DNA of 64,000 nt from Zymoseptoria tritici IPO323. Its lineage: Eukaryota; Ascomycota; Dothideomycetes; Mycosphaerellales; Mycosphaerellaceae. Positions within the stretch are counted from its first letter, which is position 1; each line of letters begins with the position of its first letter. The position numbers were made by a program, and so were the translations under genes. Positions 8,749 to 42,879 of the stretch are shown in pieces. The stretch covers positions 124,001-188,000 of the forward strand of contig NC_018204.1 in assembly GCF_000219625.1 (NCBI RefSeq), in the 5' to 3' direction. The notes under the pieces are model-generated. The model did no database searches and was not told where the DNA came from. It saw only the letters and a program-made list of their open reading frames with translations.

Positions 8749-10720
8749 AGTTTAGGATAGGATACGAGATTAAATTACGCCGCCGTCTATCCTCCGCCGT
8801 CTACCCTCTACCGTCTATCGTCCGAACGGTCTATCCTATTATCGACTAAAAGCGTACCTACCCCTCGACTCGCTTTATAAGCCGTTACCCTTACCTAGAA
8901 GCCTTCCTCGGCGATATTAGTAATAGTATAAGGAAAGATCCTAAGTCTCTTAATTACGGCGGCGACTACGCTACTATAACGACGACTATACGACCTCCGC
9001 CCGGATCGTCGAGCCCTCTACCGCCTCCGAGCTTTAAGCGAGCTCTAAACCTCGAGTATATAATCGATAACCTAGTAGTCTCCTTCGAGACTATAAATAC
9101 TTCGTATTTTAATAGGTTTCGAAAGTATTTATCGTCGGAAGTAGTACTACTAAACCCGATTAGGTCGATCTTTTAGGCGGCTAATATTCCGCTTACGCTA
9201 GCTAATCTACTATATCTAGGTACTTCGGTATCTCCGCCGCGCGCGGAATAGAGCTCCTAGTAGCTCGGAGCTACTATTTAAAAGACATAACAATAGTAGT
9301 ATAGAGCCGTAGTTAAACAAGTAGGGAGACGTTATATAATCGTTATATAGTAGCCTTAGTATCGTAGAGGAGGGAGTAGGTATAAGCTCGGCTTTAGTTA
9401 TATTCGGTATACTACGCGGCGCGAAGGGGCGGATATACGATAAGGGTATTAAGTATACATAGAACTATCTTATCCGTCCTAACCTCCTTAGATTGCCTAT
9501 TAAAAACGATTGCTCCGCTTAGATCTAATATAACCTTCTACTCCTTTAGTTATACTACTCTTAAATCTACTAGCGCGACCTATCTCTTTTAGTATCGATA
9601 TCGAAGTTAATAGCGAGGCGTAAGATTTGTACCTATAGATAAGTTTGTTCTCGCGATTATATAGTATAATATAGCTCCTTATTATCGTTAAGGCTACGAG
9701 TAGGCGGGAGAGTAGTATACTATATCTTAGTAGTAAGGTAAAATATAAGGTAGGAGCTACGGTCGATCGTACGGTCGAAGGATAGTATAAATCGTTTCAA
9801 ATAAGAGGCTTATACTTTGCTTACTTAGAGCGCTATAATGCTCGTAACTTTATTTATATTAACCCTTATCGGCTTTAACTCCTCCTCTTCTACCTTTAAT
9901 ATAGATTACTACCTACTTAGGTATTAAATTCGGGACCTTATATCTAGTATTAAAGGCTATAAGACGGTAAACAGCGAAGATTTTATAGTTATCTTAGGCC
10001 TCTAACGGGCCTCCGGACGGGCTTCGGTCTTTTTTTTTACCGTCGCCGTCGTATCCGCTCTACCTCCTTCTCCTCCTCGGCCTATAGACGACCGCTAGAT
10101 ATAGGATATCTCGAGCATCGTATATATTACCTTATATATCGTAGCCTAGGGCGCTATACGAGGGAGCTATCGACCGACTATATAACTAAGAAAGCTAATT
10201 AACGGGCGTTAGGCTTAGCTATATAAGTAGTAAAAAAACGTATACGTAATATAGGGTTATACCGACGATACTCCTACGTAGTATAAGGTATCTTAGGTAA
10301 GAGTAAGGCTAAGGAGGAGTAAGACAAGTAATAGACCGAGGCCGGGGAGGTTTTCGATCGCCTTACTTATAGGACTTATAAGTATTCTCTTAGTAGATAG
10401 GCTAGAGATAATAGTTAGTATTAGGAGAAGGAAGAAGCTCTACTACGGCGGATAATCTAGTATAGCCGGCGTAGTTATTATGTCGCTATGCCGCTCGCGG
10501 TAGGTCTAGAATACGTTATACGCGAGGGCTCCGGGGCCGAACGAAGTTAAGTTAGTAACGCAAAACACCGAGCTATATAGCGCTACTACCTACTACACCG
10601 TATCGAGAAAAGGCTATAGCGGTCGAAAGAGCTAGTAATAGACGCATAATTAAGATCTAACCTTAAAAGCTAGATAAGATCGAGTTCGTAAGGCCTTAAT
10701 ATTCGAGGTCTTTAAACTCT
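8701..10720. repeat. RIP-mutated repeat tract with coding relics
   Basis: From 8,701 to 9,283 I see no CA and no TG, while CG is common; beyond that they are rare. This is the RIP signature, not CpG deamination. On the plus strand, about 8,836-9,290 still reads as protein if TAG is taken as a former Trp or Gln codon: YPYLEAFLGDISNSIRKDPK, LNLEYIIDNLVVSFETINT, YFNRFRKYLSSEVVLLNP. A second plus-strand patch near 9,765-9,930 reads KSFQIRGLYFAYLERYN. I recognise no family. The tract is presumably an old multi-copy element or a duplicated gene. Confidence 0.75.
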
Positions 10721-17789: not shown

Positions 17790-18687
17790 TCAGAGGCTGC
17801 TTAGGAACGGGTTCGTGAGCCTCCTCGGGAGTTTGCGTAGGCGAAAAGAGAATGTTAAGGGGATGTGGTTGACGAGAGGCGAAATGTTGAGTTCAGAGCA
17901 GGCACAGGCGGCGTTGACATTGCTTTTGTCGGGGTGTGGGGAATTCGCGGTGTTGCCTATGTTAGAGGCTGTAGTGTAGCTGGCCACGGGAGCGATGGCG
18001 TTGATTTGATCGCTGGATCTTCGTGTTGTCGTAGCGGCTCGTCTCGAAGGAGATGCCATTGGTGCTCATAGAGCTCCCATGTGGGGATCGGCGGTCCTCC
18101 TCGTGTTAAAGCAGGCTACGGAACGTCCATGTCTTGGTAGTCCTGTGGGAGTTTGTTATCATCGAGGTTCGAGAAGGGAATTTGTAGGAGCTGGTCGAGA
18201 GATAGCGATGAGGCGGTCATCTCGTCGACTCCAATGGTTGTAGGCGGTCTGACTGTGATCAAGACGAGGTTGGGAGAGGCCATGTGATGAACGGATTGGT
18301 CGCCATGTTTGAACCGTCACCTAGTAGGCAGAGCCGCCTGTGAGCAGGCATATGATCTCTGTGCTCTTCTCGGGAAGGTCTCAGCTTCTCAGCAAGGTTC
18401 GCGTTCGTTCGGAGGAAGAGTCAAACGAAGGGCCATCGATCTCTCCGTCCAGATCAAATGCTCCGTCCAGATCAAGTGCTCCGTCCAGATTAAGTGCTCC
18501 GTCCAGATCAAGTGCTTCCGTTAGGGCCCTGCCTTATCTTAAATAGTCCCATGTCCAAATCATCACGCCGTGCTTGACGGACACATCGACACCATGGAAA
18601 TGCTGCGATAGTTGTGAGCTGGATGTCGCTTGTATAACAGGTAGAAGATGGGCACGGTTCGTCTTGCGTTAATCAAGGCGATACGGT
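17790..18687 (-). pseudogene. Relic with LDLDGA repeats, cut by the LTR
   Basis: A minus-strand frame starting at the LTR edge reads FHGVDVSVKHGVMIWTWDYL, then four copies of a six-residue repeat (ALDLDG, ALNLDG, ALDLDG, AFDLDG), GPSFDSSSERTRTLLRS, and a Thr/Ser/Ala-rich tail (RRAATTTRRSSDQINAIAPV, VNHIPLTFSFRLRKLPRR). It is interrupted by seven stops (TAA, TAG and TGA); several are one transition from Trp, Arg or Gln. The reading begins abruptly at 18,687 next to the LTR, so its N-terminal part has been lost or displaced. No family is recognised. Confidence 0.4.
18443..18514. repeat. 18-bp tandem repeat, 4 units
   Basis: Four copies of CTCCGTCCAGATCAAGTG with single-base variation (CAAATG, TTAAGTG). 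They encode the LDLDGA repeat of the minus-strand relic, so unit length and frame agree. Confidence 0.9.
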
Positions 18688-18688
18688 A

Positions 18689-19472
18689 TGTTGTCGACGA
18701 AACCATTTTGAGCGTTCGGCTCGTCCAGCCCCCACTCCAGCTTGGTCTGATATCTACGCAGACGTGATTAATCCTACGCGCAAGAACGTTTATTCCCTTG
18801 CCTAGCCGCTGAGGCAGAATATTTTGTTAACATGTGACGAGCAGCTAGGATCCTATTTACTTTAGACACATCTCCTCGCTTTACACGTGACATCCTGTGC
18901 ACTACACTACATATATACAACGAATAATGCATAGGAAAAGTCTTATAGGCGATAGCATGTCCTTTACTTCTTAGTAAGCTTAATAGTCTAGCATAGTTTG
19001 GCAGAGGGGTCGAATCTATGCTATGCTAAAAGCCTAGACTAGTATGCTAGTAGCATGCTAGATCAAATGCGGCTTGCTAGAAGATGCTAATAACAGCCGC
19101 ATAGACTTAAACACCGCCGAGAAAGCTGTACGTACTAGATATACTACGTCGATATACGATATGCGCGTACAGATTGCTCGGCAGCCTCGTGCTATTAGCA
19201 TCTGTCTAGCATTAGCATAGCATAGACAGCTGTGCTAATGCTAGCCAATAAGGAAAAAGGCGCTGCTAGAAAAGCTAAACTTCGATAATGCTAGCTATGT
19301 GATCAAAAAGCGGAAAAAGAATAATACTAATTATAAGGGCGAAGGCCCTTAAGCTATATAGACTAACTGAAACGAGCGAGTTATGTGATAATAACGAGCC
19401 TTCAAGTGAAACGGTGTCTAAGGCTTTAAGGGTTTAAGTAAACCTAAGCGAGGTTTTTAGTGTTTTTGAACA
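18689..19472 (-). repeat. 3' LTR, 784 bp
   Basis: In element orientation it starts TGTTCAAAAACAC and ends GTCGACAACA, so it has TG..CA ends. It is the same length as the other LTR and differs from it at 20 positions, all transitions, 19 of them at CpA or TpG. Internally it has many short GCTAGCAT/ATGCTAGC palindromic motifs. Confidence 0.95.
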
Positions 19473-19485
19473 TCCTCCCCTTTAG
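19473..19485 (-). other. Polypurine tract
   Basis: Directly beside the 3' LTR the minus strand reads CTAAAGGGGAGGA. A purine run at this position primes plus-strand DNA synthesis in LTR elements. It fixes the element's orientation as minus, in agreement with gag-pol. Confidence 0.85.
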
Positions 19486-19734
19486 TAAATGCGTAACCTT
19501 AAGCGTTTGTAACAACCTTAATTAAAGGCTCAGGTTATATGCTAATGCTCTTAAGTGGGTGTGCGTGACCTCGAATAAACGAGCGTAATCTAGGAGGTCC
19601 GTAATTGCTCGGAAGGTAAGGGTTTAAGTGCAATCGTCTAGCTAATTCTAGTAGGTGAATAATCTAATTCACGTACTATCACAAGCCTTAAGCTGGTAAC
19701 TGCTAGCACGTAGTCGAATTCACTAGTAGGTCGC

Positions 19735-19881
19735 CCCTCTAAGGGCACAAAAGCGACTGCGTTCTTCTTTTTAAACCTTTTCTCTTTTATTAACATCCGT
19801 AATCCTTTCCTTCCCTTTTCCTTAGACCTTTATATAGTCTACGATTACCACACCTTATAACATCACAACACACCTTAAGCA
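19735..19881 (+). promoter_or_regulatory. Promoter-like leader of the antisense ORF
   Basis: A strongly pyrimidine-rich stretch (about 19,765-19,830) is followed by TATATAG at 19,831-19,837 and an ACACACC-type leader just before the presumed start codon at 19,882. CT-rich tract, TATA-like box and C/A-rich leader are usual for ascomycete promoters. It lies inside the retrotransposon just within the 3' LTR and points away from it. This is inference from pattern only. Confidence 0.45.
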
Positions 19882-22305
19882 ATAGTCGCTATAGCGAAGG
19901 GTAACGAAGACAAGCGTAAGAAAGACGATAAGAGCAAGGACGACAAGGTCGACAAGTAGCTCCGCCGATCTCCTCGTAAACTAGCCCCTAAGTTCCCTCC
20001 TACGAAGGCTGTTCAAAGTGCTATTAAGACAGTCAAGCGCGGATACTTAGATACAAGGATGTTAACTTAAGCATTTAGCTCGGTCTTAAGTAGCAAGAAT
20101 CAGCCGTTACGAGCTGCTGCTACCTAAGAATTAATAGATAAGTTCGCTTTAAGGAAACTCTACGTCTAGCCTAATGTTATATCTCGGCGTAACTATATAG
20201 AGTATACCAAATTCGGGTATAAGCAAGCTACTGGTTATAAGTCGGCATACGATGCTTATCGAGATAGGCTTAATATGTCTGCCTTAAGCCTTAGGTCTAA
20301 GCTACTAGGCACACGCGCCCCTACAAGCAACAATTACGAAATCCCTTAGCGTAACCCTTAACTAGCGAACTAGGGCCGCGGCTTAAGGAGTCGCACTGCC
20401 GTACAAGGTTAGGACCCTACGATGCCTCGTAACGTCCTTAACCGCTCTCCGGATCTTCGTAGCTTGTACCCTAAGCTAGATCGCTTCGACCCTTAAGGAA
20501 ACATTAATAGCACTACTATGCACGCCTCTGTCGGCGCTCGACTTAAAGCTCTCCTTACTCCTAGCCTAGCCTCTAATCGCATCGCGGTTACGGACGCATA
20601 GATAAGGGAAGTAATGTATTGTCTGATTATAGTGTCGAATGCGCCTATTAAGTACCTTCGGCAATTCCTAGCTACCTTTACGATTTCCTAACTTAATGCC
20701 TTAATTAATAGACTTTAAGCGTTCGAGCTGGGCGATCTGCGTAGCTTAGACTAGCGTAAATCGGACGGTTACCTTATTAGGGCCTATAAGCAATAGCGTC
20801 TAGTCTCTCTTTTTACTTAAGCTCTCGGTGGCAGCCCTTAAGAAGGCAACTGTAGCTGCGAGTCCGGCAAGCGTAAGGCTAGTCCCTTTAAGTTATGTCG
20901 CAGTAGTAGAGGCTGCTTTAGCTACTGTGCTAACTACAGCTATACTAACTACTACGATCGCTATTCGGTTGGAGATTCTAAACTCTAGGGAAAGACTAGG
21001 ACTAAGAAGAGGAACCCGAAGGCTAAGGAAGGTAATAACGATGTAGAGGACGAGTAGGTAGACTTTAAGGAGGAAGTCTTAATTCCGCTCCTAGAAGAGC
21101 CTATCTAAGTGCCTTCAAGCCCGCCGCCTTCCAGCCCTAGACTATTCGATTCTGGACCCGGTAGGGTCACCTAGCTGCTATTACCCTTCTTACTAGTTAG
21201 ACGAATCTTGCCGACATAGAGGACATTAACTTAATAGCTGTCGCAGCTCGTTCTCCTAACTTAAGGGGTCCTTTGTCTGCTCGTAAGGAGATAGACACTA
21301 CTCCTTCGCGGCTAGAGCGTCCTTACTTGGATCCTTTAAGGGGGTTCGGTAGATCTCCGGGTGCTAGGCCTTTGTCCTTCTAGCTTCCTAAGAACTACGC
21401 CTAAGGAATGCCTATAACTATAGATAATAGGTATCGCCGCGACAACCTTTAAGCTAGGCGTACGACCCGTCCGGCTAACGTACCTCTACTCTCCCGCATA
21501 GGGCAATAAGGCTCCTCTAGGCCTGGCCCTACCCTCTTCCCGACAGGCGATCGTTAAGGTACTCTAGCGCTAGTGCCCTCTAGTTTAAGTACTCGTCGGG
21601 GCCCGCCTCCTCGGCCGAGCACCATGCCCGCTCCGGTTTAAGCTCCGGTTCGAAACGCACTAGCTCCAGCTCGTTAATCCCTAAGCCTACCGTTCTATAA
21701 TGCGGCGGAGGATTTCGTAGATCTAATGTACGAAGGAGAGAGGCTCTTATACGCCATCGATTAGACCTTGATACTAGCACGGACCGGCTTAACTAATAAT
21801 TACGACCTAATTCCAACCTTCTCCGGCTGCCTTGTATACGAGCTAGTGCTCCCCTTAAGCGGTTTCGCTACCTAGGGGAACCTGTTTTTTGGCACGGCTC
21901 CTCGGGCTAACAATAGGCGTTAAGCATACGGCGCAGAGGGCCTAACAGTTCCTCTAGGAAGCTAACGTACGCGCGTGTACACGGAGCACATCGAGCAGCT
22001 CTACCGCAACCGCTTTAACAAGCGCCACTCCGTATATCAAGTCGTCTAGATAGCTCTCTCGCGGGCTTAAGTGCGTCTTAGAGCTAATTAAGGCATTACT
22101 CCTTAGATGCTGCACTTGTAGGCGGTAATGTCAGCCCTTAAGACGCAGCTTATTACTAAGAAGGAAGAAGATGCTAAGAGGGAGTAGGCTAAGAAGGGTT
22201 AATTCGGGTCTAAGTAGGATCGGTAGAAAATTCGTAGGCTTAAGCAGGAGCACCAAAAGCATTGTTTTTCTTGTTTTTCTTTTTTTCTAAGCCCCCTTAT
22301 CTACT
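19882..22305 (+). pseudogene. Accessory ORF antisense to gypsy gag-pol, Cys-rich motif
   Basis: On the plus strand, opposite to gag-pol, a frame of about 800 codons fills the space between the end of pol and the 3' LTR. Frame 1 runs from 19,882 (ATA-GTC, an ATG start changed by RIP; a second candidate is ATA at 19,891) to about 21,180; after one frameshift it continues to about 22,305. Nearly every stop is TAA or TAG where CAA, CAG or TGG is one RIP step away. The N-terminal part is Lys rich (KGNEDKRKKDDKSKDDKVDK); then YTKFGYKQATGYKSAYDAYR and ITIS-type helices; at 20,821-20,970 a Cys-rich block (NCSCESGKRKASPFKLCRS, SRGCFSYCANYSYTN, DRYS); then Pro/acidic linkers; the C-terminal part is basic (KKEEDAKRE). 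The Cys block resembles the fungal DUF3716 pattern, with low certainty. Pol and this ORF converge tail to tail within about 150 bases. Confidence 0.7.
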
Positions 22306-22419: not shown

Positions 22420-25400
22420 GGGGATCTATTAAACTTAGGCCCTCGCATTAACCTTTCGTTTAGACTTAAAGGTTAGCTTCCTTCGTAGCTGCACCGCAGG
22501 ATTACGAGGAGCTTTCCTTATGTTCTAGGGTAGTCGTCGACGGGGCATAACTACAATAGTGTCCTCGTTATTACCCGACTCCCCTTAGGGTTTAAGTGGA
22601 GTCTCCTAGAGCTCGGAAGGGATCACAAGTAGTTCCTCTTCCGTTTCTTCTATAATAGGCTCCGTAGGGATAGGAACAGTTGCTGTAACAGGGTTAACTT
22701 AAGCGTCTTCCCTTAATGTTGCTGCTGCATTTACCGGATATATAACCGGCTAACTTAAGGGTGCTAACTTCTTCAGCTCCCTAAGACGTTTCTTTTCGAG
22801 AGTAGCCTTAAGTTTCTCTACCTCCTTAGCATTGTCTCGATTCGCGCGTGAAACATCTCTATACTTCCTTCGGATCTTATTAGCAGCGAGTTTAAGCTTA
22901 TGTTAAAACTTTGGCTAATCGTTAGTTTTTAAAGAATCTAAAGGTTTGCCCTCCCCTAAAAGGAATCGAAGGGCTCCTAACCGTTTAAGCTGCTATAAAG
23001 ACAACTTGTCCTACTTCTGCTTAGGGATAGTCGCTAGAGTAGAGAAACTTAAGCATAGATTAAGTGCTAGATTATTACGCAAGGAGTCCTTAAACTCCTA
23101 GCTAGCGGCCTTAAGTAAAATCTCCTATCTACAGCGCTTCTGCTAGTCCCTAAAACTAGTGCAGTTAGCGCGGATTAGGCGATTACTATGCACCTAATGC
23201 TTAACTACAGACCCGTCGTAGGACTCTAAGGTATACGTACTAAGCTAGCTTCGCTTAATTACCTTAAAGGGACCTACGAAGGTCGGCTAGAGCTTCGTCT
23301 TAGTCTTATTTAAGACAAGAACAAAGTCTCCCTCGATAAACTTGCTATTAGTCTCCTTAAAGGTGTGTCTACTAATAGCGCCGGCTCTTACTGCTTTCGC
23401 AAGCAGCTTTTCTGCGGCAATCGTCCTAGCGTTCTACATTACTTAATGCCCAGATTTAGGATCCTCGGGCTTAAGCTGCATTAGACGCAGGTACGGATAA
23501 TCCTCAAGTATTCGGGGTTGCTGGCCGAACAAGAGGAAGAAGGGGCTGTATCTACAACCGGACTAGGCCCGGATTCGGCTTGAATACAGCGCCTTAGGAA
23601 GGTACAAGTCCCAAGCGTGCACGCTTTTACTATAGCACATCTTAGAGAGGATCCGGCCGAGAACACCGTTTAAGGCCTTAACCTTCCTGTTCGTACGGGG
23701 ATAGTAGGGCGTCGTTAGCCTATAGTTAGCTTAAAGGGTATCTATAAGGATATTAAACGCCTTGCTTATAAAGTTGGATCTATTGTTACTAAGGACTTCC
23801 CTTAGGGGTCCAAAGTTCGCATAGATCTCTTCTTAAACAAAACGAGCGACCGTCTCGGTTTCCTAATTCGAGGTAGCCCTTACAACCGGCCAACTAGTAG
23901 CATAATCCACGGCTGTAATAATGTACTTGTTACTATTAAGTGTAACAGGCATTAGACCGACAACATTAATTGCCTAGTGCTTAAATAGCTTAAGCTTAGA
24001 ATTAGCTTAGTGGAATCGCGGCTCCTATAGGGGACTCCGGGACTTCTTCTTCGTAGCTTAACACTAAGGGCAAGTAGAAGCGTAGTTATAAACATCCTGT
24101 TTAAGTAACTACTACTAGCCCCTCGCTCGAAGAATGCTACAGACGCCGGGCAGTGCGAAGTGCCTGTAGTTATTGTAGCAGCGTTTAAGGAAGTCCTACC
24201 GGAATTCCGGATCTACGTAGGGTACAAGGCTTCTATTAGCCTCGCGATAATATAGGAGGTCGTCCTTAAGGACAAGATCTGACACCTTCTTTTTAATTAA
24301 GCGGCTTAGCTTCTTGTTCTCGGGCATCTCCCCTATAGTTTTGAAATAGATTACTCTATTAATTACCTTACGCTCGGAGAATCCTCGTATAATCGTCCCC
24401 CTTGTAGCGTTCTCCTTAAAGGAGCGAGGCAAAGCGGTTAAGAAGTCCGCGGGTTTAAGTAATTAATCCCTAGGCTATGTAGAACCCTCCCCGGCCATAT
24501 TAGCTAGGGTACCTTCTATTAAGTCCGGCCGGCGGGAGAGGGCATTAGGGACTATAGCCTTATTCCCCTTGCGGTAGCGGATGTCGATGTTATAAGCTTA
24601 AAACTCCTTAATCTAGCGTGCAAGTCGCTTAGTTAGAGTCTTCGAGGTTTTTAGGTACTGCAGGCTATAGTAATCCGTAATTACTTAAGTCTTAGTCCTA
24701 TTGTCGATATAGTAGTTCCATTTTCGAAGGGCTTCCTTAATAGCAAGGAGCTCCTTCTCGTGCACTAGATAGTTTAGTTCTGCCCCTTGCAGCTTGCGGC
24801 CCTCGAAAGAAACCGGATGCAATTTCCTATTAGAGTTAGCTTAATGCAGGACTGCACTAAGCGCCTACTTACTTACATCCGTTTTAATAATAAAGGGCTT
24901 CTTAGTGTCTGGCATAATTAGCACTAGCTCGCTGTATAAGGCTTCCTTAAGCTTCGCAAAAGCGATAGTGTACTAGGCAGTCTACTTAATAGGGCGCTTC
25001 TTCTTAGCACGCAGTAGCAAGTTATCTTCCTTAAGGAGGTCTAACAGCGGAGCAGCGTACCTAGCAAAGTCTCTAACGTACTTGCGATAGAAGGAAGCTA
25101 GCCTAATAAACTGCCGAACTTCTTGCGCGTTAGTCGGCTATAGCTAATCTCTGACAATAGAGATCTTGTCTTCTATAGGCCTAACTTAATTGTAGCTTAC
25201 TCGATGTCTACAGAAGTCGAATTCCTTAACCCTAATATAACATTTCTTAGGGGAGCAATATAGCTCTTAAGACCGCAGGACATCTAGGACTTCCTTTAAG
25301 TAGACTTCGTGTTCCTCTAGGGTCTTAGAGAAAATCACGATATCGTCTAAGTAAACTACACATGTCTTGTAAAGGTGCCTTCTTAGAGCTTCGTTTATTA

Positions 25401-26660
25401 AGCTCTAGAAGCTTGCCGGTGTATTGCACAGGCCGAAGGGTATTACCTTAAAGTAGTATTTGCCCTAGCGAGTGTTAAACGCTGTCTTGTGCTAGTCCTC
25501 TTCCTTTACCTTTAATTGCTAGAACCCGGAGGTTAAGTTAATCTTGGTAAAGTAGCTTAAACTATAAAATGCATCTAAGCAGTCGGAAATCCGAGGTAGG
25601 GGGAATCGATCCTTAACGGTGGCGTTGTTTAGAGCCCTGAAATTAACGCACATTCGCTATTTCCCTCCTAGCTTAGGTACAAGTAACACAGAGCTTCCCT
25701 AAGCCGATTAGGATTTGTTAATTAACCTACGCTTCTAGAGTTCCTCGATTTAAGACTCCTGTTCAAGCGATTAGGCATAAGACAGCTAGTAAGGCTGTTA
25801 ATTAATCGGCTTATAGTCCTTAGTATTAATTAAATGCATAATAAACCGGTCCTTCGGTAGCTTGTTAGGTAAGGAAGATCTAAACAGATCCCTGTTGTCT
25901 AGGATAATGCGGCTTAAGCTAGGTTCCTTACTTAAGGGAGGAGGAACGTCGTCTTCCTTAAGGGACATAGGGTCGTCCTTAGGATCGCGTTCCCTCTCCT
26001 GTTGCCGCTCCTGGTATTTATCTATGTTTAAGAGATATAAAGGCGTGTCGGGATTAACGTTAAGTAAATCCTCCAGTTCCTTAAGGGAACAGAGGTCCTT
26101 ATCTACCGGAATGCTCCTTAAGTTAGGAGCGTATCTAGAGCATAGTATAGCATACTTAACACCGTTGTCGTATAAGTACACCTTGTTCGTAAAGAAATTA
26201 ATAGTCGGGCAGTACTGCCTAAACTATTTAAGGCTAAGGATTACCTCGTGATTAGCGAGATTAAGCACTCGGGCAGTGATTTCCCCCTTAAAGTTACGCA
26301 GCTAGTAAGGCAGCTTAACCCTAAGGGTTGTCTCTATTGCTGTGCCGTTAGGCAGAACTACGGTCTAGGAATCTATAGCTACTTAAGCCTCCGGAAACTA
26401 GTCCGCGATCGTTCGTAAGACGTATATACGCGTAGCCCTAGTATCGAACAGGAACTTGGCCTTAACAGAATGCTTACTTAAACCTAAGCGTCTAGAGGTA
26501 ACTAAAAGGTTTGGTCCTATAGCGTTAAGGTAGTTAAGTTAAGCATTAGGAGGGATCCTAAGCAATAAGGGCGACGCAACAGACGACTTAGAATCCTTAG
26601 CATCTAAGTCGCTGTCTATTTTTTTGTCGGCTTGCTTAAGCCCCCCTTACGTCTGTTATA
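22420..26660 (-). pseudogene. Ty3/gypsy Pol polyprotein (PR-RT-RH-IN), RIPed
   Basis: Minus-strand order: protease near 26,460 (FLFDTRATRIYVL, aspartic-protease DT-A-T type), linker (open from 26,181 to 25,798), RT from about 25,700 (NFRALNNATVKDRFPLPRI, then VVYLDDIVIFSKTLEEH near 25,350), RNase H (KPFIIKTDVSK near 24,890, then NALSRRPDL near 24,520), integrase zinc domain (NYRHFALPGVCSILRARG, STCP*C) near 24,180-24,065, and integrase core 24,000-23,650 (INVVGLMP, then SNNRSNFIS, then NRKVKALNGVLGRIL). A basic tail follows to about 22,440. Integrase Asp, Asp and Glu are now Asn, Asn and Lys, each explained by TpG to TpA. Numerous TAG/TAA at former Trp and Gln codons abolish translation. Confidence 0.93.
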
Positions 26661-27830
26661 GTCGTCCTACTTCTTCTGCAAGTCTGGCTTAAGCTTCTTC
26701 TAACAGCGATACTAGGTGTGTCCGGCGACTCCGCAGTTATGGCACTTTAAGGAATACTCCTAAGCCGGTAGCTTAGAGCTGTTGTCGTTAGCTATATATT
26801 TAAGGGCAGCGGCAACGTACTCTACGGTAGTCTTGTTTACCTTTCTTAGTTTAAAAGCCTTCCTAGCAAGAGCATTGCGGTTTTCCTTAAAGGCAGGGGC
26901 ATCTATTCTTAGGCCCCTTTAAGAATCTACGACCTCCTAGTTAGCTACGTCGATAGCTTAAGCCTAGTCTATAATCTCCTATAGTCTAGCCTTTTAAGGG
27001 GTAAGCTTATGTCGAATAAGCTCCGCTCGAATCGACAGCTTAAGCCTATTAAAGAAGACAGTAGCATTAGAGAAGTTATTAGGCCTTAGCTTAAGTATGC
27101 GAGCTACAGAGAGGATTTTGTAATAGAAGGTAATAACACCTCCTGTTTGCTTAAGAGCTCGGTATTGTCTCTAGAGCTTCTCTTAGTAATAATAATCTTA
27201 GAAATAGGAGACGAGGTTGCCGAGCATTAAGTTAAGAGTATAGGTTCCCTCGATAATTTTAAGCCTACAAGTCTCTTCCTGTTCCTCCTACTAAGTAAGG
27301 GCGTTACGCTACATCTAGCTACCTACTAATTCGATAAGGTTAGCTTCGGATAGGCGGATACCCCTCTATCTTAGGGCAATCTAAGACCTTAAGTAACGCT
27401 CTATAGACCTGACCCAGATATTAGCAGCGTTGTTTCGAGTGTCTCCCTAGTATAGTTCTAGTGCCCGGACGGAAGCCTTAATAAAAGTATCTAAGGAATT
27501 AAGGGGAGTTGTATCCCTACCTAGTGTTCTAGACGTGTGGCGATAGGGACGACTTGGTCCCTTATCGTTACTTAAGCCGTGTCTAAGGTTATCTCCTCGA
27601 TATAGGGATAGCTTAAACCGTACGGCTCCTAGCTCGCTTAGTCCCCGGATAGGCCTGTTAGCAGATCCTGCTCGAACAGGCTCCTGGGACAAGCGGGCGT
27701 TCTCGGCCTAAAGTCGGACAGAGTCCGCTTTAAGTTGATTAATATGTTCCTCTATCTCCCTTAAGGCGGCCATATGCTCGCTAAAACGAGTAGGGCCTAA
27801 GCCTACATTCGCAGCAGCAGGTCGGCTTAT
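26661..27830 (-). pseudogene. Ty3/gypsy Gag with CCHC zinc knuckle, RIPed
   Basis: The N-terminal part starts at the LINE junction (RPAAANVGLGPTRFSEH) and has a coiled coil (MAALREIEEHINQLKADSV); 27,692-27,447 is still open. The C-terminal part carries CHNCGVAGHT, stop, YRC at 26,760-26,715, a CX2CX4HX4C knuckle for RNA packaging, followed by Lys-rich sequence leading to the protease. The N-terminus and leader are lost at the LINE insertion. Stops are of the RIP type. Confidence 0.85.
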
Positions 27831-30800
27831 TGTTTGTTTGTTTGTTCCATTTACGTCCTGTAGGAGTCTATGACTATGTAGGACGGCTGTCTCGCGACAG
27901 CAGTCTATCTATGTACAATCGTTGTTCTCTCGTATCTCTTGACCTTAGGGAAAGACCCGTACCTAGGATAGTAGCCAGCTAGTATCGAAGGACTTTAAAG
28001 AAAGACAAATAAGGAAAAGTAAAGGAGTGTAGGCTAGACGGTCTCGTCTTCGCCTCTTGCTAGGTGCCAGGACCTAGAAGCAATCTTTATGTCCGAGAGA
28101 AAGGTAGTAAGGTGTTTCCGGAGTTCCTTATCTTCTACTATTTCTAGTAGAGATTGTGCTTGTCGTAGCGGTAGTGGCCTAAATACATCGTAGATAGGGC
28201 AGCTACATACGAGGTGTTCTGCTGTTTCTCGTCGTCCGCAAGGGCAGTCTAGCGTCGTTACGTGTCCAAAGCGATAGAGATAGGACTTTAGGTATCCGTG
28301 TCCTAATAGGATAGTATAGAAGGCACTAGTTAAAGCGCGTCTTCCTCCTATTCTATGTTTTCCTGGCGAGCTCCATGAAAATCGACTAAGGTAGCTATTT
28401 GTATTCCTAGGTACCTTATTAATCTCCCGTTGTCTTACTATTTCGTATCGGGTTTTCCAGACGCTAAAGAGATCGTCTTTTGCGTAGTTAGCCCTCTCGT
28501 GTTCTACGAAATGCTTGTATTGTCGGAGTCGATAACAGAGTAGTTGTATCTGTGTTCTCTGTCATTTTTGCGGAAGTATCTCTCTCGAGTCCTCGTATCG
28601 GACTTCTCGCGTATCCGAAGGCGCGCTTTGGATAGCGAGTCTTACAGGGTAGTTTTCGGGTAGCTTTGCTGCGCGTAGAGAGTATAAAATTGACTGTCTC
28701 TCTAGGCGTAGATCCGGGGGGAAGAGATTTAACTCTACCTCGGACAGGACGTTTAGGGCGGTACGGAAAACGCCTAGGATCTTTCTACAAGCTTTACTTT
28801 ATAGAGATACTAGAGGTTTTATGCTCTTTTTCGACCGCTACCAAACCGGGGCCCCGTAGTCTGCTATTGTAGTAACGCAGGCTAGGTAGATCTTTCTTAA
28901 CGATATAGAAGATAGACCGCGTTCGGTATTTACTAGTCTTTCTAATCGATAGAATGCCGCTTGTGCTTATGCCGATCTTATTACAATATACTCCTTAAAG
29001 GTAAGACCGGCGTCTAGCTAAATCCTAAGCTACCTTATCGCTTTCTTTGCCGGGCGAACAATGTCGCCGTTTGGAAGAATTACCGGGCAATCGGACCCTT
29101 TCCCTTTCGAGAAGTGTACTAGGTCTGTCTTTGCTAGGTCGAAAGCAATCGAGTTCTTCTTTCCTAGGTCTATTAGCCTTCTTGCCTTACGTTCTAGTAC
29201 CTTAGAGTTCTTCTTAAGGGACGTAGACGAGGTAGATAGTCTAATGTCGTCGACGTAGGAACTAGGAGTAACTCCTTGTAGCGAGAAGAATATGTCGCGC
29301 GTATAGATAAGAAAGAGGATAGGAGACATCGGGCTGCCTTGCGGAACGCCGATCTCTACGTCCTAGAATTCCTATATCTGTCCGTCGAATGCTATTCGTA
29401 GGCGTCTATTGCTCATAAACGACTGAACCTAACGTATAAGGCTGTGCGGAAGCCTTAACTGGATTATTATTCTTAACAGTCGGTTCTTTACAACGTAGTC
29501 GTATGCTCCTCTTACGTCGAGGAAGATAACCGAAGTCTTCTTTTTCTTTCTTCGATTCTCCTCGATTTCGTTCGTTAAGAGAAGCACCGTATTAATAGCC
29601 GATTTCTTCTTTCGCCCTCCTAACTGCGAGTCGTGTAGAAGGGGCTTCGTCTCTGCGATAATCCCTAGGCGTTTTGCGAGTATTCTCTCGCTAATCTTGC
29701 TAAGGCAGTTTAGGAGAGAGATAACTCGGTAGGCCTTAGGGACCGAATAGTCTAGTTTTCCCGGCTTTGCTAGAACTGCGCCTGTCGCAACTTTCCAGCA
29801 TCGGGGGTAGTGTCCTTCGTCGAGTAGCCTACTGTATATACGTAGAAAGGTAATAGGAATAGCGCCGTACGCTTTACTAATAATAGCTTGCGTAATGCCG
29901 TCTAGGCCCGGCGTTTTTCCTTTTACTATCTTCGTGCTACAGGCGGCAGCGAGTTCCTCTTCGGTTAGCGTAGTCCAGCCCTAATCCCCGGCTGTATACG
30001 CTTCCTAACGGCTAGGTAGAGGTTCCTCGGCAGGAGGGCGCGGAAATAAGGCTTCGGAGAAGGCCTTACATTTCCCCTCGAAAGAATCTTCGTTGTTTAT
30101 CGTAGGTATCTGTCTTCGGCTGCTATTCCTAGTATAGGACATAGCTTTAAAGATAGATTTCGAGTCTTCTTTTTCGAGGAAAGCGTTCCAGTAGTTCTTC
30201 TTAGCTGTTTTAATAGCTTGGAAGTACTCGTTTCTCGCTTTCGTATACGCCTCTTTCTCGTCTAGCGTCGGCGTATGTCCGCAGGTAAAGGTCTGTCTAT
30301 ATGTTCTAGACATTATACGGCGTAGCGTACGTAGCTCTCTATTCTACCAAGGTTTTGCGCAGGCGTGTACTACTTTCTCTAGGATTGCTCCCCGCATCGA
30401 TTCGGTAATATACGAGGTAAAGGAGTCTGCGATGTCGTCGAGGGAGTTCGTATAGTTAATAGACGTCGCCTTGCTTATTAGGAGATCTGTAAACAGTTCC
30501 TAATCCGCGGAAGCTATATCTAGAACTACTTTCTTCTATTAGGCTCGATCTTGCGCGCTAATAAGGTCTATAGATATAGCCTTATAGTCTAAGCCTGTCG
30601 GAATCGTTCTCTAGTCGATTTCTTTCGTAGATAAGGATCCTCTTGTGAACGTAAGGTCTAGGACCGACTCTGCGTCTAGGTGCGGCCTATAGAAGGTCCC
30701 GATACCTATCGTATTACGTAGAGTAAAGCCCTGGTCTTCTATCCACTCTATAAATTCGCGGGCGCTAGTAGTATCCTTTCCCCTCGGATCCTAGGACGGG

Positions 30801-30860
30801 TGTCTAAGGTTAAAGTCTCCTACTAGTAGAGTGTTTGGAAGGAACGTGTTACGCAGGGTA
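27831..30860 (-). mobile_element. LINE retrotransposon, 5'-truncated, nested in the gypsy element
   Basis: Non-LTR element on the minus strand. The 3' end has a (AAAC)n tail (TTTG repeats at 27,831-27,846) after GGACGTAAATGGAAC. Endonuclease block LLVGDFNLRHPS*DPRG is near 30,830-30,785 (star is the RIPed Trp). The segment between endonuclease and RT is open at 30,313-30,005. The RT has GVPQGSPMSPILF near 29,350 and SYVDDIRLS near 29,255. The C-terminal region has VTTIADYGAPVWW near 28,860 and a zinc-knuckle-like CPCGRRETAEHLVCSCP near 28,245. The endonuclease N-terminus is missing: the frame runs straight into the LTR at 30,861. Architecture suits the Tad/I-type LINEs of fungi; the exact clade is not proven. 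Confidence 0.92.
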
Positions 30861-31644
30861 TGTTGTCGACGAAACCATTTTGAGCGTTCGGCTCGTCCAG
30901 CCCCCACTCCAGCTTGGTCTGATATCTACGCAGACGTAATTGATCCTACGCGCAAGAACGTTTATTCCCTTGCCTAGCCGCTAAGGCAGAATATTTTGTT
31001 AACATGTGACGAGCAGCTAGGATCCTATTCACTTTAGACACATCTCCTCGCTTCATACGTGACATCCTGTGCACTACACTACATATATACAACGAATAAT
31101 GCATAGGAAAAGTCTTATAGGCGATAGCATGTCCTTTGCTTCTTAGTAAGCTTAATAGTCTAGCATAGTTTAGCAGAGGGGTCGAATCTATGCTATGCCA
31201 AAAGCCTAGACTAGTATGCTAGTAGCATGCTAGATCAAATACGGCTTGCTAGAAGATGCTAATAACAGCCGCATAGACTTAAACACCGCCGAGAAAGCTG
31301 TACGTACTAGATATACTACGTCGATATACGATATGCGCGTACAGATTGCTCGGCAGCCTCGTGCTATTAGCATCTGTCTAGCATTAGCATAGCATAGACA
31401 GCTGTGCTAATGCTAGCTAATAAGGAAAAAGGCGCTGCTAGAAAAGCTAAACTTCGATAATGCTAGCTATATAATCAAAAAGCGGAAAAAGAATAATACT
31501 AATTATGAGGGCGAAGGCCCTTAAGCTATATAGACTAACTAAAACGAGCGAGTTATGTGATAATAACGAGCCTTCAAGTGAAACGGTGCCTAAGGCTTCA
31601 AGGGTTCAAGTAAACCTGAGCGAGGTTTTTGGTGTTTTTGAACA
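30861..31644 (-). repeat. 5' LTR, 784 bp
   Basis: Matches the LTR at 18,689-19,472 end to end with 20 transitions and no indel. It is flanked on the left by LINE sequence instead of a primer-binding site and on the right by CATGC, with no target duplication. GGTA precedes both LTRs on the plus strand, a possible microhomology. Confidence 0.95.
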
Positions 31645-36388: not shown

Positions 36389-39136
36389 GACAAATTTGTC
36401 CGAAAGCATTAATCGCTACGCTCCTTGCATAAGTGCACCGAAGTTCTCCTCTTGACCGCCGACAGCGCGCAGCCAACGCGCAGCCAACGCGACCACAAGC
36501 GAAGAAAGAGCCAACAAGACAACCACGGCTGAGCGGAGAGAGCGGGACAACGTATGAGGAGACCACAACGAGTGGGACGTGGCGGATGAGGAGGATAGAG
36601 AGGATGAGGAGGATAAGAAGGATCAGTGGCGTGTCTGGGATATTGGTCGACCGCCACCAACGGATGCAGCAACCACGCCTCGTCCAGGAGCTCCAGTCTC
36701 GGCGCCATGCCCTTCAACGACACTGCTAGGCCAGTTCATTGCGGTTCTGGCTCGACTCCGGGCACCAGCCGGTGCGTCTCGTCCGTTAACCCTCGCCAGT
36801 TCTCCCGTTCATTCCAAGGCCTTAGCCCCGAATACCTCGAATGCGCAAGGATTCGCGGTTGTCAGGCCTGAGTCGGATGACAGGGATGTAGCAGCTGTAG
36901 TAGATAAGGCAGTGAGTTAATACCGTAGCCGAAGGAGAGAATTTATCAAGTAATCATCTCAACCACAGCGCTTCGGCAGTCTAGACCGTCTCTTGTGCAA
37001 ACACCCGCAACACCTGAGCGTCTGTCTCTGTCGGCTCGTGCCTCTGCCTCCTCTGCCAAGAGTCGTAGCATTTACCCTTCGTTCGGTACTGCCGCACCGG
37101 CGGCGTCCGCCTCGGAGACCTTTCCTCCCCGTTCCAGCAGCAGCAACAAACACTTGCAGCACCGCCGCCGACAACAGAGCAATCGAGCCAGAGAAGGCCT
37201 ACCAAAAGCCATTCCACAGAAAGTCAATTCGCAAAAAGTCATTTTGCAAAAAGGTATTCTTAACAAAGACATTCTGCAAAAGTCATTCTGCAAAAAGCCA
37301 TTGTGCGAGTTTCGAAAGTCTCAAGGTCAGACAGCTCAGTGATCGCAGCGATGTCTATGCTGTCAGATGCGTACAAGCGTACAGCATTAAAACCGAGGAT
37401 TTCCGCGAACCGAAGGTGAGAGCTGTGGATGTTGGTTGCAGAGTCTACATAGCACTATAATCAAGGCAACGTGGCTGGACATGTTGGAGAGAAGAAAGAC
37501 CAGCGCACGCTCCGCCTCGGGCACATTTTAGTTTGGGCGTCAACTTTCGACGCCCAAACTGTTCGACGCCCAAACTGAATGGCAGCAACAGCGCATATGT
37601 CGCCGTGCGTCGTGGTCATCAAACAAGGACACGACGAAAACTGCGCGTGCCCAACCTTATCTCATCCATTCCCAAGCACGAACTTGGACTTGACTCGACC
37701 CTCTGTATCATCGCTCCGCGCCAGCCGCCCAACTCCGGCCACGACCACGAATACGATCATGGCAGTCAGGCTGGCATTGGCGTCACTGTAGCATACGGCA
37801 AATCGACAGCGACATGACCATGGTCATGTCGGGCGCAAGAGACGGGATGGCTTCGCTCTACACCGTCCATTCATGCCGGGCGCAAGAGATAGCTTCACTT
37901 TACGTCGTCCGCCCTTCCGACGGCGCAGACTGGCGACTTGCTCTCCACCAGCTTGGGCATGCTATGCGCCACTCCGAAAGAGCTGTTGAAGTATGCAGAC
38001 TAATTGCAAGCTCGAGAGATGGGCGTGGACAACAGTTAGGCGAGGAATCTGTCATTACGAAAGCGCAAGATCTGGCCATAGCTCACAACTTCTCCGCTTC
38101 AACCCGTGAGCCTTTAAACTGCGGCGTCAAAGCTCGCTTAACGCTGCATCTGGAGACCTCGAACTAAGTGATCTTGTCGGCTGTGAAGGCATTGGATCTC
38201 ACGTACGGCAACGCGATTGCTGGCGAGCGTATCTGCCGGATCGCTCCACGGTCGAAGCTGTGGTACGGCATACCACCTGGTTCTTTCTTTTCTACCAAGA
38301 CAATGGGGTGAGCTGGGTTGGACGTACGCAACCGGTGGCCACCCCGAGCCTATAGTATGCTTGGAGTGAGGCCATTATCAATCACGCCATTTCCTCAATC
38401 CAACTGAACAACATCCTTGCTAACGACAACATCACCAACTTCGACCACCTCCTTGCTGAGAAGAATCAAGCTCTACCTCGATCAACTCATCACCAAGATG
38501 CCTCCCACGAAAGCCTCCACCGCCGCGTCCAAGAAGGCTGCCGCCGCCAGCTCGCACAACCCATCTCACCTTGGAATGTTCCCGCAGGCTTTCAAGTCGC
38601 CACGCACGTGGCACCTCTTCGGTACTACTTCCATCTTCTCTTCGCAGGTCGCTAATGCATAGCCCTCACAGACACGATCCTGGAACGACTACCACTGCCC
38701 GGCGAGCCTCCCGACGTACTCAAGCTCTAGCCTCTTTCAATCCCCATCAAGACGATGATCGACCAAGTGGAGACCAAAGATAATGGAAGCTAGTACGGCA
38801 CAGCGATGTTGAAGAGTCATGACCCACAAGCAGACTGGAGGTACGGACAGAGTGCAGGTCCGCGCTCTGTCTCGCTAGCCTCACGCTCGTCCTGTGCGGC
38901 TTTGGATCCGAAGACCTCGCGTTCACGGGCATGATCAAGAAGACGAGATTAAATGCATATAAGCTGGTGCAGCGCTTTGGATCCGGAGATGTCGCAATTC
39001 ACGCGCATAATAAAGCAGACTGGAATGAATACATCTAGAGCAGGCGCAGCTTCGGGACTCTACTACGGCGAACATGCGTTTTCCGATATCCTGCAGCGGC
39101 TTAACGGCTTAAACGGCCTCTCGGTCACAACAGGTC
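36389..39136. other. Un-RIPed DNA with coding scraps only
   Basis: Nothing complete. A GAGGATAGAGAGGATGAGGA run lies near 36,590. Imperfect GCAAAAAGTCATTCT repeats lie at 37,215-37,310. The string GACGCCCAAACT occurs at 37,549-37,560 and 37,565-37,576, with its inverse AGTTTGGGCGTC at 37,530-37,541, forming a 12-bp hairpin. Plus 38,405-38,728 reads LNNILANDNITNFDHLLAEK and later ALTDTILERLPLPGEPPDVL with a stop between, a possible decayed gene. Confidence 0.4.
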
Positions 39137-39359
39137 TTGCACGGCGATCCTAGCCTCTATGATGTGAAACAACTTCCTAGCACTGCTTCCGGGTATGTTT
39201 CATTACGTCAGCTATTCTCGGAAGCAGAAGGGTCGGGAAATGCTAAACTAAATTCGAACTCCAACCTCCTCCTTACTACTATAGCTTTTAATATCCTTCA
39301 CAACTATAACATTACTAACACTACCTTAATTACGTACAAAAGTAGTTTATTGTAAAGCT

Positions 39360-40428
39360 TTAATCGTTACCTATCCGCTAAATTACTTTTTACTAGAAAC
39401 CGTCGACTACTCGCTACGTAACCGCCCTCGGCGCGACTATCTACGATGCGACTAACGAGATAAGACGAGAACCTTATATAACATTGTTTACGAGACCGAT
39501 AGAATAGTACCGACATCGTAAAACTACTACTAAACGACGGCCGCGGCTCTTCGACATCTATCTACGTACGTATTAAGAGATTTAAGGAGACTAGCTCTAT
39601 CTTCCTATGCCCTAGTAGCCGGCTACGACTAATAGAGCTACACTATAGGGACTTCCTTCTAGACTATATAATCGAGAAGCTATAGCTATAGTGCGAGGAG
39701 TTATAAGAGCTATTATATAAGCGATTTATACTCTAGGTATATAAGTGTACGATAAACCGGTACCTTAATAACTAAGACTTTACGAACAAGCAGTTATTAC
39801 GTACTACTACTTAACGAGACGACATAGCTAGGGCTATGTTTTAAGCGTAGCTCTAGTAGCTACTCGCTTACTAGCTCGTCTATGTCGATAAGACATATTA
39901 TAGTAATAAGGTAGTATTAAGAAGAAGAGGTTAGGCACTAAAGGGTATACTAGTAAGAGATATTAAACACCTCTATTATTTAGAGCGGTTTAGTATCCTT
40001 CCGGCGTATATAGTAGACGGATATCTCGCTAAGCCGCTTATTAAATAAGGTAGTGTTACCTCTAAGGACTTCATCGACTAGATAAGGACGTTAGTATTAC
40101 TACGCTATAGACGGTTTCCTACTCTACGTAGTGTTATTATTATAGACAACTATATAACATACGATCGACTAGTAATATAAGACATATATATAGTACAAGG
40201 GGTACGGCTACTCTTCCTTCCGCCCTATTTACTTTACTAGACTATAACCCTATTAAGAAGACGTTTAGACTTATAAAGCATTAGATAAGGAAGCACGTAG
40301 ACTTAATGCCGGCATATAGCGAGGCAGACTAGATTCCGAGGTTTATAGAGTTTATAACTATAGCTTATAAGCATTAGGACCGAGGGGTTAATTATATAGC
40401 GTTGTTTAAAGCCTATTATATATTATAG
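39360..40428 (+). pseudogene. Tc1/mariner-type DDE transposase relic, RIPed
   Basis: The plus strand of a RIP tract encodes the core of a DDE_3-type transposase (IS630/Tc1/mariner superfamily), which cuts and pastes its own element. In order: VYVDKTYYSNKVVLRRRG (the first Asp block and RRRG), ILPAYIVDGYLAKPLIK, GSVTSKDFID, RSVIIIDNYITYDRLVI (second catalytic Asp, canonical SVIIMDNASIH), VQGVRLLFLPPY, then after a one-base frameshift DYNPIKKTFRLIKH (canonical NPIE; third acidic residue now Lys), ending TAG at 40,426-40,428. Stops are former Trp/Gln codons. I could not place terminal inverted repeats because of RIP. Confidence 0.85.
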
Positions 40429-41499
40429 TAGCCCTCTAGCTTTATATCTTATCCCCTAACGAGCCGATTCCTATTTTCGTAGGCGTAATCGAAAGCTCTC
40501 GTCTTGCTCTTAAAGCCCTTTATGCTTACTTATTTTTTATAAGCCTCCGTCGTCGCGATACTAGTACTTAAAGAGTTGTTAGTAGTTGTAAGAATTTGCT
40601 AAGTATATAAACTTTAAGGCTAAAACCCTAAATCCGTTACCTCCGCGGGGAAGCGGGAGTACCCGCTCTTAGCTAGATTCTATACCGCGTAGTTACGTAT
40701 ATATTAAATAGTCTTAAAATAACATTTATCGTATAGAACGCGCTCCGTACTATTAAACAAAAAAACAACTAGCGAATTTAGTTATATTATTATAGTACAA
40801 CAATTAATATAAGTTAGTTATATCGAAATTTATAGAATTTAAGGTTCTTAGGGTTCTTAAATCCGGCCCGGATTTCTTACCCCTCGATCTATAAACACTA
40901 GGGATATATATATCTTTACTATTACGCGGTTAATTCTCTTCGTTTCTTTTTTGCCGGCGCTCGCGCTTATAGATCTTAGTAATAGAGTGCCTCTGTTCTA
41001 ACGCCTATAGAGTATAGTTGCGCGGTCGTAGTAGAAAGTATTAGATTTAGTGCTAAGTAGAATTTTACGCTAAAAAGAAGGGTCCGTACGCTAGCGTCGC
41101 GCTAGCTACGGAGAATATTATTCGACTTTACGTTAATACCGTCTATTAAAGATAATTGTTATCTATTAACATATATATACTATGTTATAGCTTATCGCTA
41201 TCGGTAAAGCGTTAAAAAAGAACGAACATAATCGGACTCGTAGCGGTAGAGATATCGCGTACGTAAGAATCTACCGACTAGTAAGTATAACTTTAGCTTA
41301 TATAAGCTCGAATTCGAAAACTCTAAATAACTATATACACCGCCGACGACGATAACATTATAAGTAGACGGTTAATCGATATAAAAATTAAACGAGCGCT
41401 AAGCGAATAAATTAGGCTATAACATATTACAATATTAAAGCGATTAGAGTAGTAGTTGTTAAGAGCTAGCTTAGGAGGAAATATACTAACCCTAATAGA
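40429..41499. repeat. RIPed DNA without readable genes
   Basis: TA-rich with few CA/TG, stops in all frames, and some RIPed low-complexity runs. It separates the DDE relic from the minus-strand coding relic. Confidence 0.5.
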
Positions 41500-42879
41500 A
41501 TTCGAACAACGACTCTACTACAAACGCCGCTAACTCTATTACTTTCTACTACTTCTACTACCTTATATATTTATAGATCTGCCTCTAGCATAGCCTCTAA
41601 TAAGTAAACATACTTTAAGATGTTGTCCTTACTCTATAGCTATCTCCGGATGCTAGTCTCCTTTATATTAATAGCTAACACCGAGTCCGGCTCTTCCTTA
41701 AGCATAGTAATATACTAGAAGTTAGTAGTAAGGTAACCGCTAATAGTCTTTAGCCGCTCGGCTATAGGCGGCTGCCTCTTACTAAGCTATTAATAGTACT
41801 TCTTAACGTTAGTTAGATTATCTATAGCCTACTTTATAGTAGGGGCTAGTAGACTGCTACGTTATAAGGTATCCGCGGTAGCTACTAGTAAGGTAGGCTA
41901 TTAAGGCTACATTAGCGGCATTAACTAATATAGCGGCGGCTACGGTTAAGGTTGTTGTGCTATTAGTAGCGGCGGCTCTACAACTACTACCTTCTTCTTG
42001 CCCCTTATAGCATCCTTATTTATCTATAGTACGTTCTCTACGATGTGCTACGGCATGTTATCCCTCGTAGTAGTATTAGCTTTAATATAATTATACTAGT
42101 CTATAAGGTGCTTAGCCTTAAGGCTATAGTAATAGCTACGAAACTATAGATAGCTAACCTACTATATAGTCTTGTTAGCACCGGTACTACACTGCCTATT
42201 ATAGCACTTATAAGTAGCTAACAACTTGCTAAACATACCCTCGGTAGTAATAAATGCCTCCTTTAAACGGTTATTAGCTAGCTTCCTTCCCTTCTATAGT
42301 GTCGGCTCTTAACTAGGCTCTAATAGTATAAAGTCGTCGGACTCGAGCGTAGAGCTAGCGTTGTTTAGCTTAACGTTCTACTACTTCTCGTTTATTAAGA
42401 GCCTTATATTATAACCTATAAAGTGCCTAATATATAGATCTATTACCCTTATAAAGGTTAGGATACTAGTATCCTCGTTGTATTTAATGTCTACCTTCTC
42501 TTAGCCCTTACTATACTTATAAGCGGTTAGCTCTATAGAGCGATTAATAAGCCGCTTTTTAAGGCTATGCTATTGTATATGCCCTACTACTAAACCCCTT
42601 ACCTTTATAACTATATTATAGAGTAGTACTCGGTTACCGGTGTATATATAGCTAAGATCCTTAAGCTTAACACTATTAAAGACTACCCTATAGGTAACAA
42701 GGACGGAGTATTGCTCTAATAGCGTAGGGGTAGATTTAAGGCGTTTTAAGGACGACGAGGGCACCGGAGTTAACTACGGCTAAGCGTCCTATAAAGGCTA
42801 GCTTAACGTTTCCTTCGACTACGTCTACTCTACGCTATAGTTATCGGACGGCACTAAAAACACGACGAGGTTAGTTAGC

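What the first reader, a model, noticed from the sequence alone, without database searches (positions are those of the whole stretch)
19882..22305. Long antisense accessory ORF inside a fungal Ty3/gypsy element
Between pol and the 3' LTR the opposite strand carries about 800 codons in which nearly all stops are RIP-type (Gln/Trp to TAA/TAG), with one frameshift at about 21,180. It has its own CT-rich, TATA-containing leader and converges tail to tail with pol. Extra ORFs, some antisense, are known in plant LTR elements; the classical fungal gypsy elements I know (MAGGY, skippy, CfT-1 type) have none. It could encode an element-borne regulator, silencing suppressor or captured gene.
Basis: partly seen in the sequence, partly recalled or inferred. 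Interest (0 to 1): 0.85.

Follow-up and report, generated by a model that had tools for sequence, protein, structure and literature searches.

The report
Antisense gene in fungal gypsy retrotransposon
A family of decayed jumping elements in a fungal genome carries, on the strand opposite its usual genes, an extra gene of about 800 codons that natural selection kept before the copies decayed; such backward genes are known in plant elements and in one other group of fungal elements, so this is a further example rather than a new kind of thing.

Summary
The antisense ORF is real. Stops alone do not show it: every frame is full of RIP-type stops, and 16 stops in the ORF frame are shared by all 20 copies compared. 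Selection shows it. Between two subfamilies, transversions in the first part fall at third codon positions of the + frame (48 against 13 and 9). Transversion dN/dS of that frame is 0.15 (first part) and 0.50 (second part), the lowest of six frames; pol gives 0.04. Indels up to 22279 are triplets except one shift private to the window copy. Of 32 pol pieces of at least 700 nt in the genome, 31 have the ORF on the right side and strand; the other is cut before reaching it. The TATA motif is missing in 8 of 20 copies and looks RIP-made. Searches of Pfam, the PDB and a large protein collection found no relative, though the same element's RT found 1117. Antisense genes between pol and the 3' LTR are known in plants and in the fungal element Boty (brtn), so the premise that fungal gypsy elements have none is outdated. 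Best reading: an accessory gene for a basic, Cys-cluster protein, probably a nuclear regulator (inferred).

The parts
19882..21178 (+). antisense accessory ORF, first part (about 432 codons, frame of 19882); start codon not assignable
   Evidence: fewest fixed stops of six frames, transversion dN/dS 0.148
21179..22305 (+). antisense accessory ORF, second part, in the next frame because of a 1-nt shift private to this copy among 20; contains a fast-changing Pro/Ser/Arg-rich stretch about 21380-21680; copies disagree in length from 22280 on
20851..20964 (+). Cys-rich cluster (ORF residues 324-361), possible metal-binding site; Cys segregates with Tyr, the expected RIP product
   Evidence: column counts in alignment A2
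19484..19881 (+). pyrimidine-rich leader of the antisense ORF; the TATA motif here is missing in 8 of 20 copies
19473..19483 (-). polypurine tract next to the 3' LTR
19300..19472 (-). 3' LTR (173 nt here, 174 in another copy; begins TGTTC, ends GATCA)
22430..26100 (-). pol: RT (about 25213-25680, YLDD 25342-25353), RNase H (about 24592-24909), integrase core (about 23698-23934); outer ends approximate
26703..26744 (-). gag CCHC zinc knuckle; gag reaches about 27829, where the gypsy sequence of this copy is interrupted
31472..31644 (-). 5' LTR of this rearranged copy
27830..30856 (-). inserted LINE-type element (endonuclease and RT, YVDD 29246-29257), not part of the gypsy element

Best explanation
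It is a protein-coding accessory gene of a Ty3/gypsy element (one copy measures 9487 bp, with 174-nt LTRs), placed between pol and the 3' LTR and read in the opposite direction. In functional ancestors it would have been transcribed from a promoter in the leader next to the 3' LTR, converging with the gag-pol transcript, and would have made a basic protein of about 800 residues with a Cys cluster (shown: frame, selection, basic composition, Cys columns; inferred: promoter, transcript, metal binding). Most likely it acted in the nucleus on the element's own nucleic acids or chromatin, as a regulator of its expression or integration (inferred, by analogy with the plant antisense genes). All 20 copies aligned carry many stops and are broken.
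For: Transversions between the main subfamily and three older copies fall 48/13/9 by codon position in the first part, the 48 at third positions of the + frame (chi-square p 2.7e-9). Transversion dN/dS 0.148 (first part) and 0.498 (second part; 0.327 from 21681 on), each the lowest of six frames; pol control 0.037 and 0.041 in the pol frame. Three single-pair bootstraps give 0.13-0.19 for the first part with upper limits 0.22-0.39, and 0.49-0.53 for the second with upper limits 0.74-0.87. Indels in 19 other copies are all multiples of three within 19882-22279 except the one position where the window copy alone differs. ORF at the expected distance from pol in 25 of 32 pol pieces, further off but on the same side and strand within 16 kb in 6, absent in 1 that is truncated by a LINE. 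K+R 130 against D+E 68 in one copy read. Convergent position beside the 3' LTR as in the plant aORF-3R class, whose Grande product is nuclear and has its own promoter (review PMC7264820, parts 1 and 2 of 3 read).
Against: No function is shown. There is no convincing family, fold or homologue. The TATA motif is probably a RIP product. The second part is weakly constrained: its transversions by codon position (48/38/55) do not differ significantly (p 0.21), and one subset (L012 against L026, from 21681 on) has an upper limit above 1 (0.541, 0.288-1.196). The - strand frame sharing the third positions also has a reduced ratio (0.49 in the first part), though far above 0.148. Pairs of copies share history, so the averages are not independent observations. 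16 stops shared by all 20 copies must be put down to saturated RIP; pol shows a like pattern (11 of 433 and 7 of 467 fixed).
Confidence: 0.55

Rival explanations
1. The antisense transcript, not the protein, is what matters: it pairs with gag-pol RNA and feeds or tunes RNA silencing, the reading frame being a by-product.
For: Convergent, tail-to-tail arrangement; the review discusses dsRNA as an alternative or additional role.
Against: Selection on amino acids in the first part and triplet-only indels need a protein. The ORF and pol hardly overlap in the window (ORF end about 22305, pol end about 22430).
Confidence: 0.12
2. A structural or packaging protein (a second Gag-like or Env-like product) of the element.
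For: Basic composition and Cys cluster would also suit an RNA-binding particle protein.
Against: No convincing similarity to the element's own gag or pol (best E 0.022); no hydrophobic stretch suggesting a membrane span (highest 19-residue mean 1.24 in one copy); opposite strand.
Confidence: 0.15
3. A captured host gene or another transposon nested in one ancestral copy and carried along without function.
For: No convincing relation to gag-pol.
Against: All 38 scored matches in the genome are at least 75% identical, with no host paralogue among them; purifying selection after the subfamilies split; found in both subfamilies next to the same LTR.
Confidence: 0.1
4. Shadow of a gene on the pol strand: the + frame looks open only because a real ORF lies antisense to it.
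For: Stop counts cannot decide strand: in pol 23200-24600 the frame antisense to pol has a lower stop fraction than pol itself (0.0407 against 0.0441), and in the gag piece an antisense frame has fewer fixed stops than the gag frame (11 against 13 of 364).
Against: All three - frames have higher transversion dN/dS (0.49, 2.1, 2.0 in the first part; 0.71, 1.4, 0.74 in the second) and more fixed stops than the + frame.
Confidence: 0.03

Closest known systems
Boty / BcGypsy1 of Botrytis cinerea with the antisense gene brtn (Zhao et al. 2011, Virology 417:248; paper not held; seen as passages and citations in PMC7264820, PMC8365987, PMC4227169, PMC5987419)
   Same: Ty3/gypsy element of a filamentous fungus with an additional antisense gene; the review cites Boty as a non-plant case of an antisense ORF between pol and the 3' LTR.
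   Different: Homology of the proteins could not be tested (no brtn sequence held). Boty-like pol has a CHROMO domain according to PMC4227169; none was detected here, in a heavily mutated reading.
Plant aORF-3R elements: maize Grande (gene23), rice RIRE2, Silene Retand (ORF4), PvRetro13 (PMC7264820)
   Same: Same place and orientation, in most copies, no clear database relatives; own promoter and nuclear product in Grande.
   Different: Plant hosts; no sequence comparison was made here. According to the review Retand ORF4 carries pfam04195 and PvRetro13 an SMC domain; Pfam scans found neither here.

Membership tests
Ty3/gypsy LTR retrotransposon | pol order RT - RNase H - integrase | tested here: met
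   RVT_1 at 2041-2196, RT_RNaseH at 2298-2403, rve at 2623-2701 of the same - strand frame (rve below its curated cut-off, 26.3 against 32.6 bits)
Ty3/gypsy LTR retrotransposon | paired LTRs, polypurine tract, target-site duplication | tested here: met
   174-nt LTRs 96.6% identical in the copy at C16, 9487 bp from end to end; AAAGGGGAGGA beside the 3' LTR in the window; 4-bp duplications read by eye in the two copies looked at (GCCT, CCTG)
Ty3/gypsy LTR retrotransposon | primer-binding site complementary to a tRNA | not tested
   sequence after the 5' LTR printed, not matched to tRNAs
aORF-3R (antisense additional ORF between pol and 3' LTR) | ORF in antisense between pol and 3' LTR | tested here: met
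aORF-3R (antisense additional ORF between pol and 3' LTR) | present in most copies of the family | tested here: met
   31 of 32 pol pieces of at least 700 nt, 25 at the expected distance and 6 further off; the exception is truncated
aORF-3R (antisense additional ORF between pol and 3' LTR) | protein conserved about as well as other element proteins | tested here: inconclusive
   conserved (0.15 and 0.50) but less than pol (0.04)
aORF-3R (antisense additional ORF between pol and 3' LTR) | transcribed from its own promoter (shown for Grande) | not testable with these tools
   no expression data; TATA motif missing in 8 of 20 copies
brtn of Boty-like elements | homology to BRTN protein | not testable with these tools
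   no BRTN sequence held; the full-length search of the protein collection gave no hit at E <= 0.01 among the 7995 candidates scored, but whether BRTN is in it is unknown
brtn of Boty-like elements | chromodomain in the accompanying pol | tested here: inconclusive
   no chromodomain match in the X-read pol frame; mutation could hide it

The most novel reading that the evidence does not exclude
An antisense accessory gene family unrelated to brtn and to the plant genes, encoding a fast-evolving basic metal-binding protein that counters or steers the fungal genome's own silencing (RIP, RNAi or heterochromatin), hence the uneven, partly relaxed constraint.
Probability: 0.2. Interest if true: 0.7.

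Novelty: new member of a known kind. Interest (0 to 1): 0.4.

Why it matters
Beside the Boty-like elements it is, as far as ten searches of an open-access library showed, one more filamentous-fungal gypsy element with a conserved antisense gene. Selection on the protein can be shown here from dead copies alone by counting transversions, which RIP does not make (recalled knowledge of RIP). The same count could be run across fungal repeats to ask how common such genes are and whether they form families. What the proteins do is unknown: the review gives no determined function for any of them.

Tried and rejected
Stop-codon counting as proof of coding: rejected, non-diagnostic in RIP-mutated DNA; in the gag piece it even favours an antisense frame. 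The TATA motif as promoter evidence: rejected. An intron at about 21180 instead of a frameshift: considered by eye and dropped, because the shift is private to the window copy. The 788-nt direct repeat as the LTR: rejected; LTRs of other copies are about 174 nt, and the rest (searched as 617 nt) has long matches only at this locus beside short ones of 70 and 56 nt elsewhere. Similarity to gag or pol: none convincing. Homologue searches of the protein collection: the first part alone (6834 candidates, none at E <= 0.001; its length limits would have excluded an 800-residue relative), then a full-length alignment (the 7995 best candidates, none at E <= 0.01). Viral contigs, prokaryote genome contigs, plasmids: nothing, and little expected, as these hardly hold fungal DNA. 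Relatives of the RT in viral contigs: none. AlphaFold on 19 copies: mean pLDDT 29.1, useless; no fold search was made. A Pfam match to DUF7730 at E 0.18 in 1 of 19 reads and PDB matches at E 1.3 and above: treated as chance. A seeming likeness of the Cys cluster to a motif I recall from fungal hypothetical proteins was not tested and is not used. L021 was left out of the codon comparisons because an insertion splits its ORF; 19 of the 20 stretches fetched plus the window were used there, and 11 or 12 of them in the controls.

Full report
Where it lies. The window is 64 kb of contig C15 of a genome of 39.7 Mb in 21 contigs, unnamed; RIP-type mutation and the retroelements say fungus (inference). 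The gypsy element is on the - strand. Its 3' LTR is 19472 to 19300, with a polypurine tract just inside. pol ends near 22430; RT, RNase H and integrase were found in the expected order, and a CCHC knuckle marks gag at 26703-26744. In another copy the two LTRs (174 nt, 96.6% identical) span 9487 bp from end to end, and the two copies looked at show 4-bp target duplications (read by eye). The window copy is rearranged: a LINE-type element fills 27830-30856, and about 615 nt of flank are duplicated after both LTRs.

Is the antisense ORF there? Yes: 433 codons read with 20 stops and 381 codons with 22 stops in two adjoining frames. On stop counts alone this would not convince: the six unbroken frames carry 48 to 74 stops each, and all stop codons are one RIP-type transition away from a sense codon. 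In the 17 main-subfamily copies the ORF frame has the fewest stops shared by all (12 of 426 codons in the first part, 5 of 362 in the second; other frames 13-30 and 8-17). A pol control with 12 copies looks the same (11 of 433 and 7 of 467, fewest of six frames), but by stop fraction an antisense frame beats pol in one of the two pieces, and in the gag piece an antisense frame beats gag. Over all 20 copies 16 stops in the ORF register are shared, which I put down to saturated RIP; this counts against a naive reading.

Selection. RIP makes transitions only (recalled), so I counted transversions between 17 main-subfamily copies and three copies of an older subfamily (about 80% identical). In the first part they fall 48, 13 and 9 by codon position, with the excess at third positions of the + frame; in the second part 48, 38 and 55, where 55 is the third position and the split is not significant (p 0.21). 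Transversion dN/dS in the + frame is 0.148 and 0.498, lowest of six frames in each part; the pol control gives 0.037 and 0.041 in the pol frame. Codon bootstraps on three single pairs give 0.133 (0.077-0.215), 0.192 (0.093-0.388) and 0.147 (0.087-0.238) for the first part, and 0.490, 0.491 and 0.525 with upper limits 0.741, 0.869 and 0.772 for the second. In the subset from 21681 on they give 0.253, 0.541 and 0.263, the middle one with an upper limit of 1.196. Indels among the 20 copies are multiples of three from 19882 to 22279 except one position, where the window copy alone differs. So the gene was one frame of about 800 codons under selection, strongest in its first half.

Distribution. 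A DNA search with a pol piece gave 36 matches, 32 of them at least 700 nt. Of these 25 have the ORF at the expected distance, 6 have it further off on the same side and strand within 16 kb (presumably interrupted copies; not each was read), and 1 has none. That one is cut near window position 22729 by a full copy of the same LINE. A search with the translated first part gave 38 matches, all 38 candidates scored, all at 75% identity or more; an older full-length read gave 43 rows, of which 28 span at least 789 of 818 residues in one frame, with 22 to 62 stops each. The tool warns that such counts are lower bounds.

What the protein is like. In one copy read, 130 K+R against 68 D+E, and a Cys cluster at residues 324-361 where Cys segregates with Tyr. 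Pfam gave no family for the window or older reads and one chance-level match in 1 of 19 reads. The PDB gave nothing below E 1.3. The protein collection gave nothing among 6834 and 7995 candidates, while the RT of the same element, read the same way, gave 1117 proteins at E <= 1e-5 among 3999 candidates, some of them named from fungi. The collection and the X-reading therefore work for a conserved domain; the ORF is either fast-evolving, rarely annotated, or both. The structure prediction failed (mean pLDDT 29.1).

Promoter. The leader between the polypurine tract and the ORF is pyrimidine-rich in all 20 copies (0.65-0.67 over 150 nt). The TATA motif at -51 is in 12 of 20 copies; 7 of the other 8 read CA within it and 1 is rearranged, so it is probably RIP-made. 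No start codon can be assigned.

Comparison with the literature. The review by Vicient and Casacuberta (PMC7264820, parts 1 and 2 of 3 read) calls antisense ORFs between pol and the 3' LTR aORFs-3R, lists Grande, RIRE2, Retand and PvRetro13, and names Boty of Botrytis and Sclerotinia as a non-plant case. PMC8365987 and PMC4227169 (passages) cite Zhao et al. 2011 for the antisense gene brtn; PMC5987419 (passage) reports a BRTN-like transcript in Monilinia. The Zhao paper was not held. A survey of fungal LTR elements (PMC3248453, passages) does not hold the word antisense in its main text.

Verdict. Real, coding, conserved, element-borne: a new member of a known kind. Function is inferred only.

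Noticed in passing
window 27830-30856; L027:6322 on; L024:1-2749; L031:1338-4365: A LINE-type element (endonuclease plus RT) of about 3027 bp: the 30856 end is the same in the window, L027 and L031, the 27830 end in the window, L024 and L031. Its 5' end lies inside the endonuclease domain match, and it interrupts gypsy copies at different points.
   Followed up: partly
window 18685-19299 and 30857-31471: About 615 nt follow both LTRs of the window copy (with the LTR a direct repeat of 788 nt, 97.5%); long matches only at this locus and weaker RIP indices than the element: a local rearrangement whose path I could not reconstruct.
   Followed up: partly
L028 and the other older copies against the main subfamily: Synonymous transversion divergence is about 0.14 per site in the first part of the antisense ORF (mean over three older copies) but 0.067 and 0.021 in two pol pieces (L028 only), which suggests recombination between subfamilies.
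   Followed up: no
window 9000-10000 and 39000-43000: Very strong RIP signature (substrate index 0.12 and 0.31), stronger than in the gypsy element.
   Followed up: no
window 27830-28030 and 43463-43670: The LINE end matches a second place in the window in inverted orientation at 74%.
   Followed up: no
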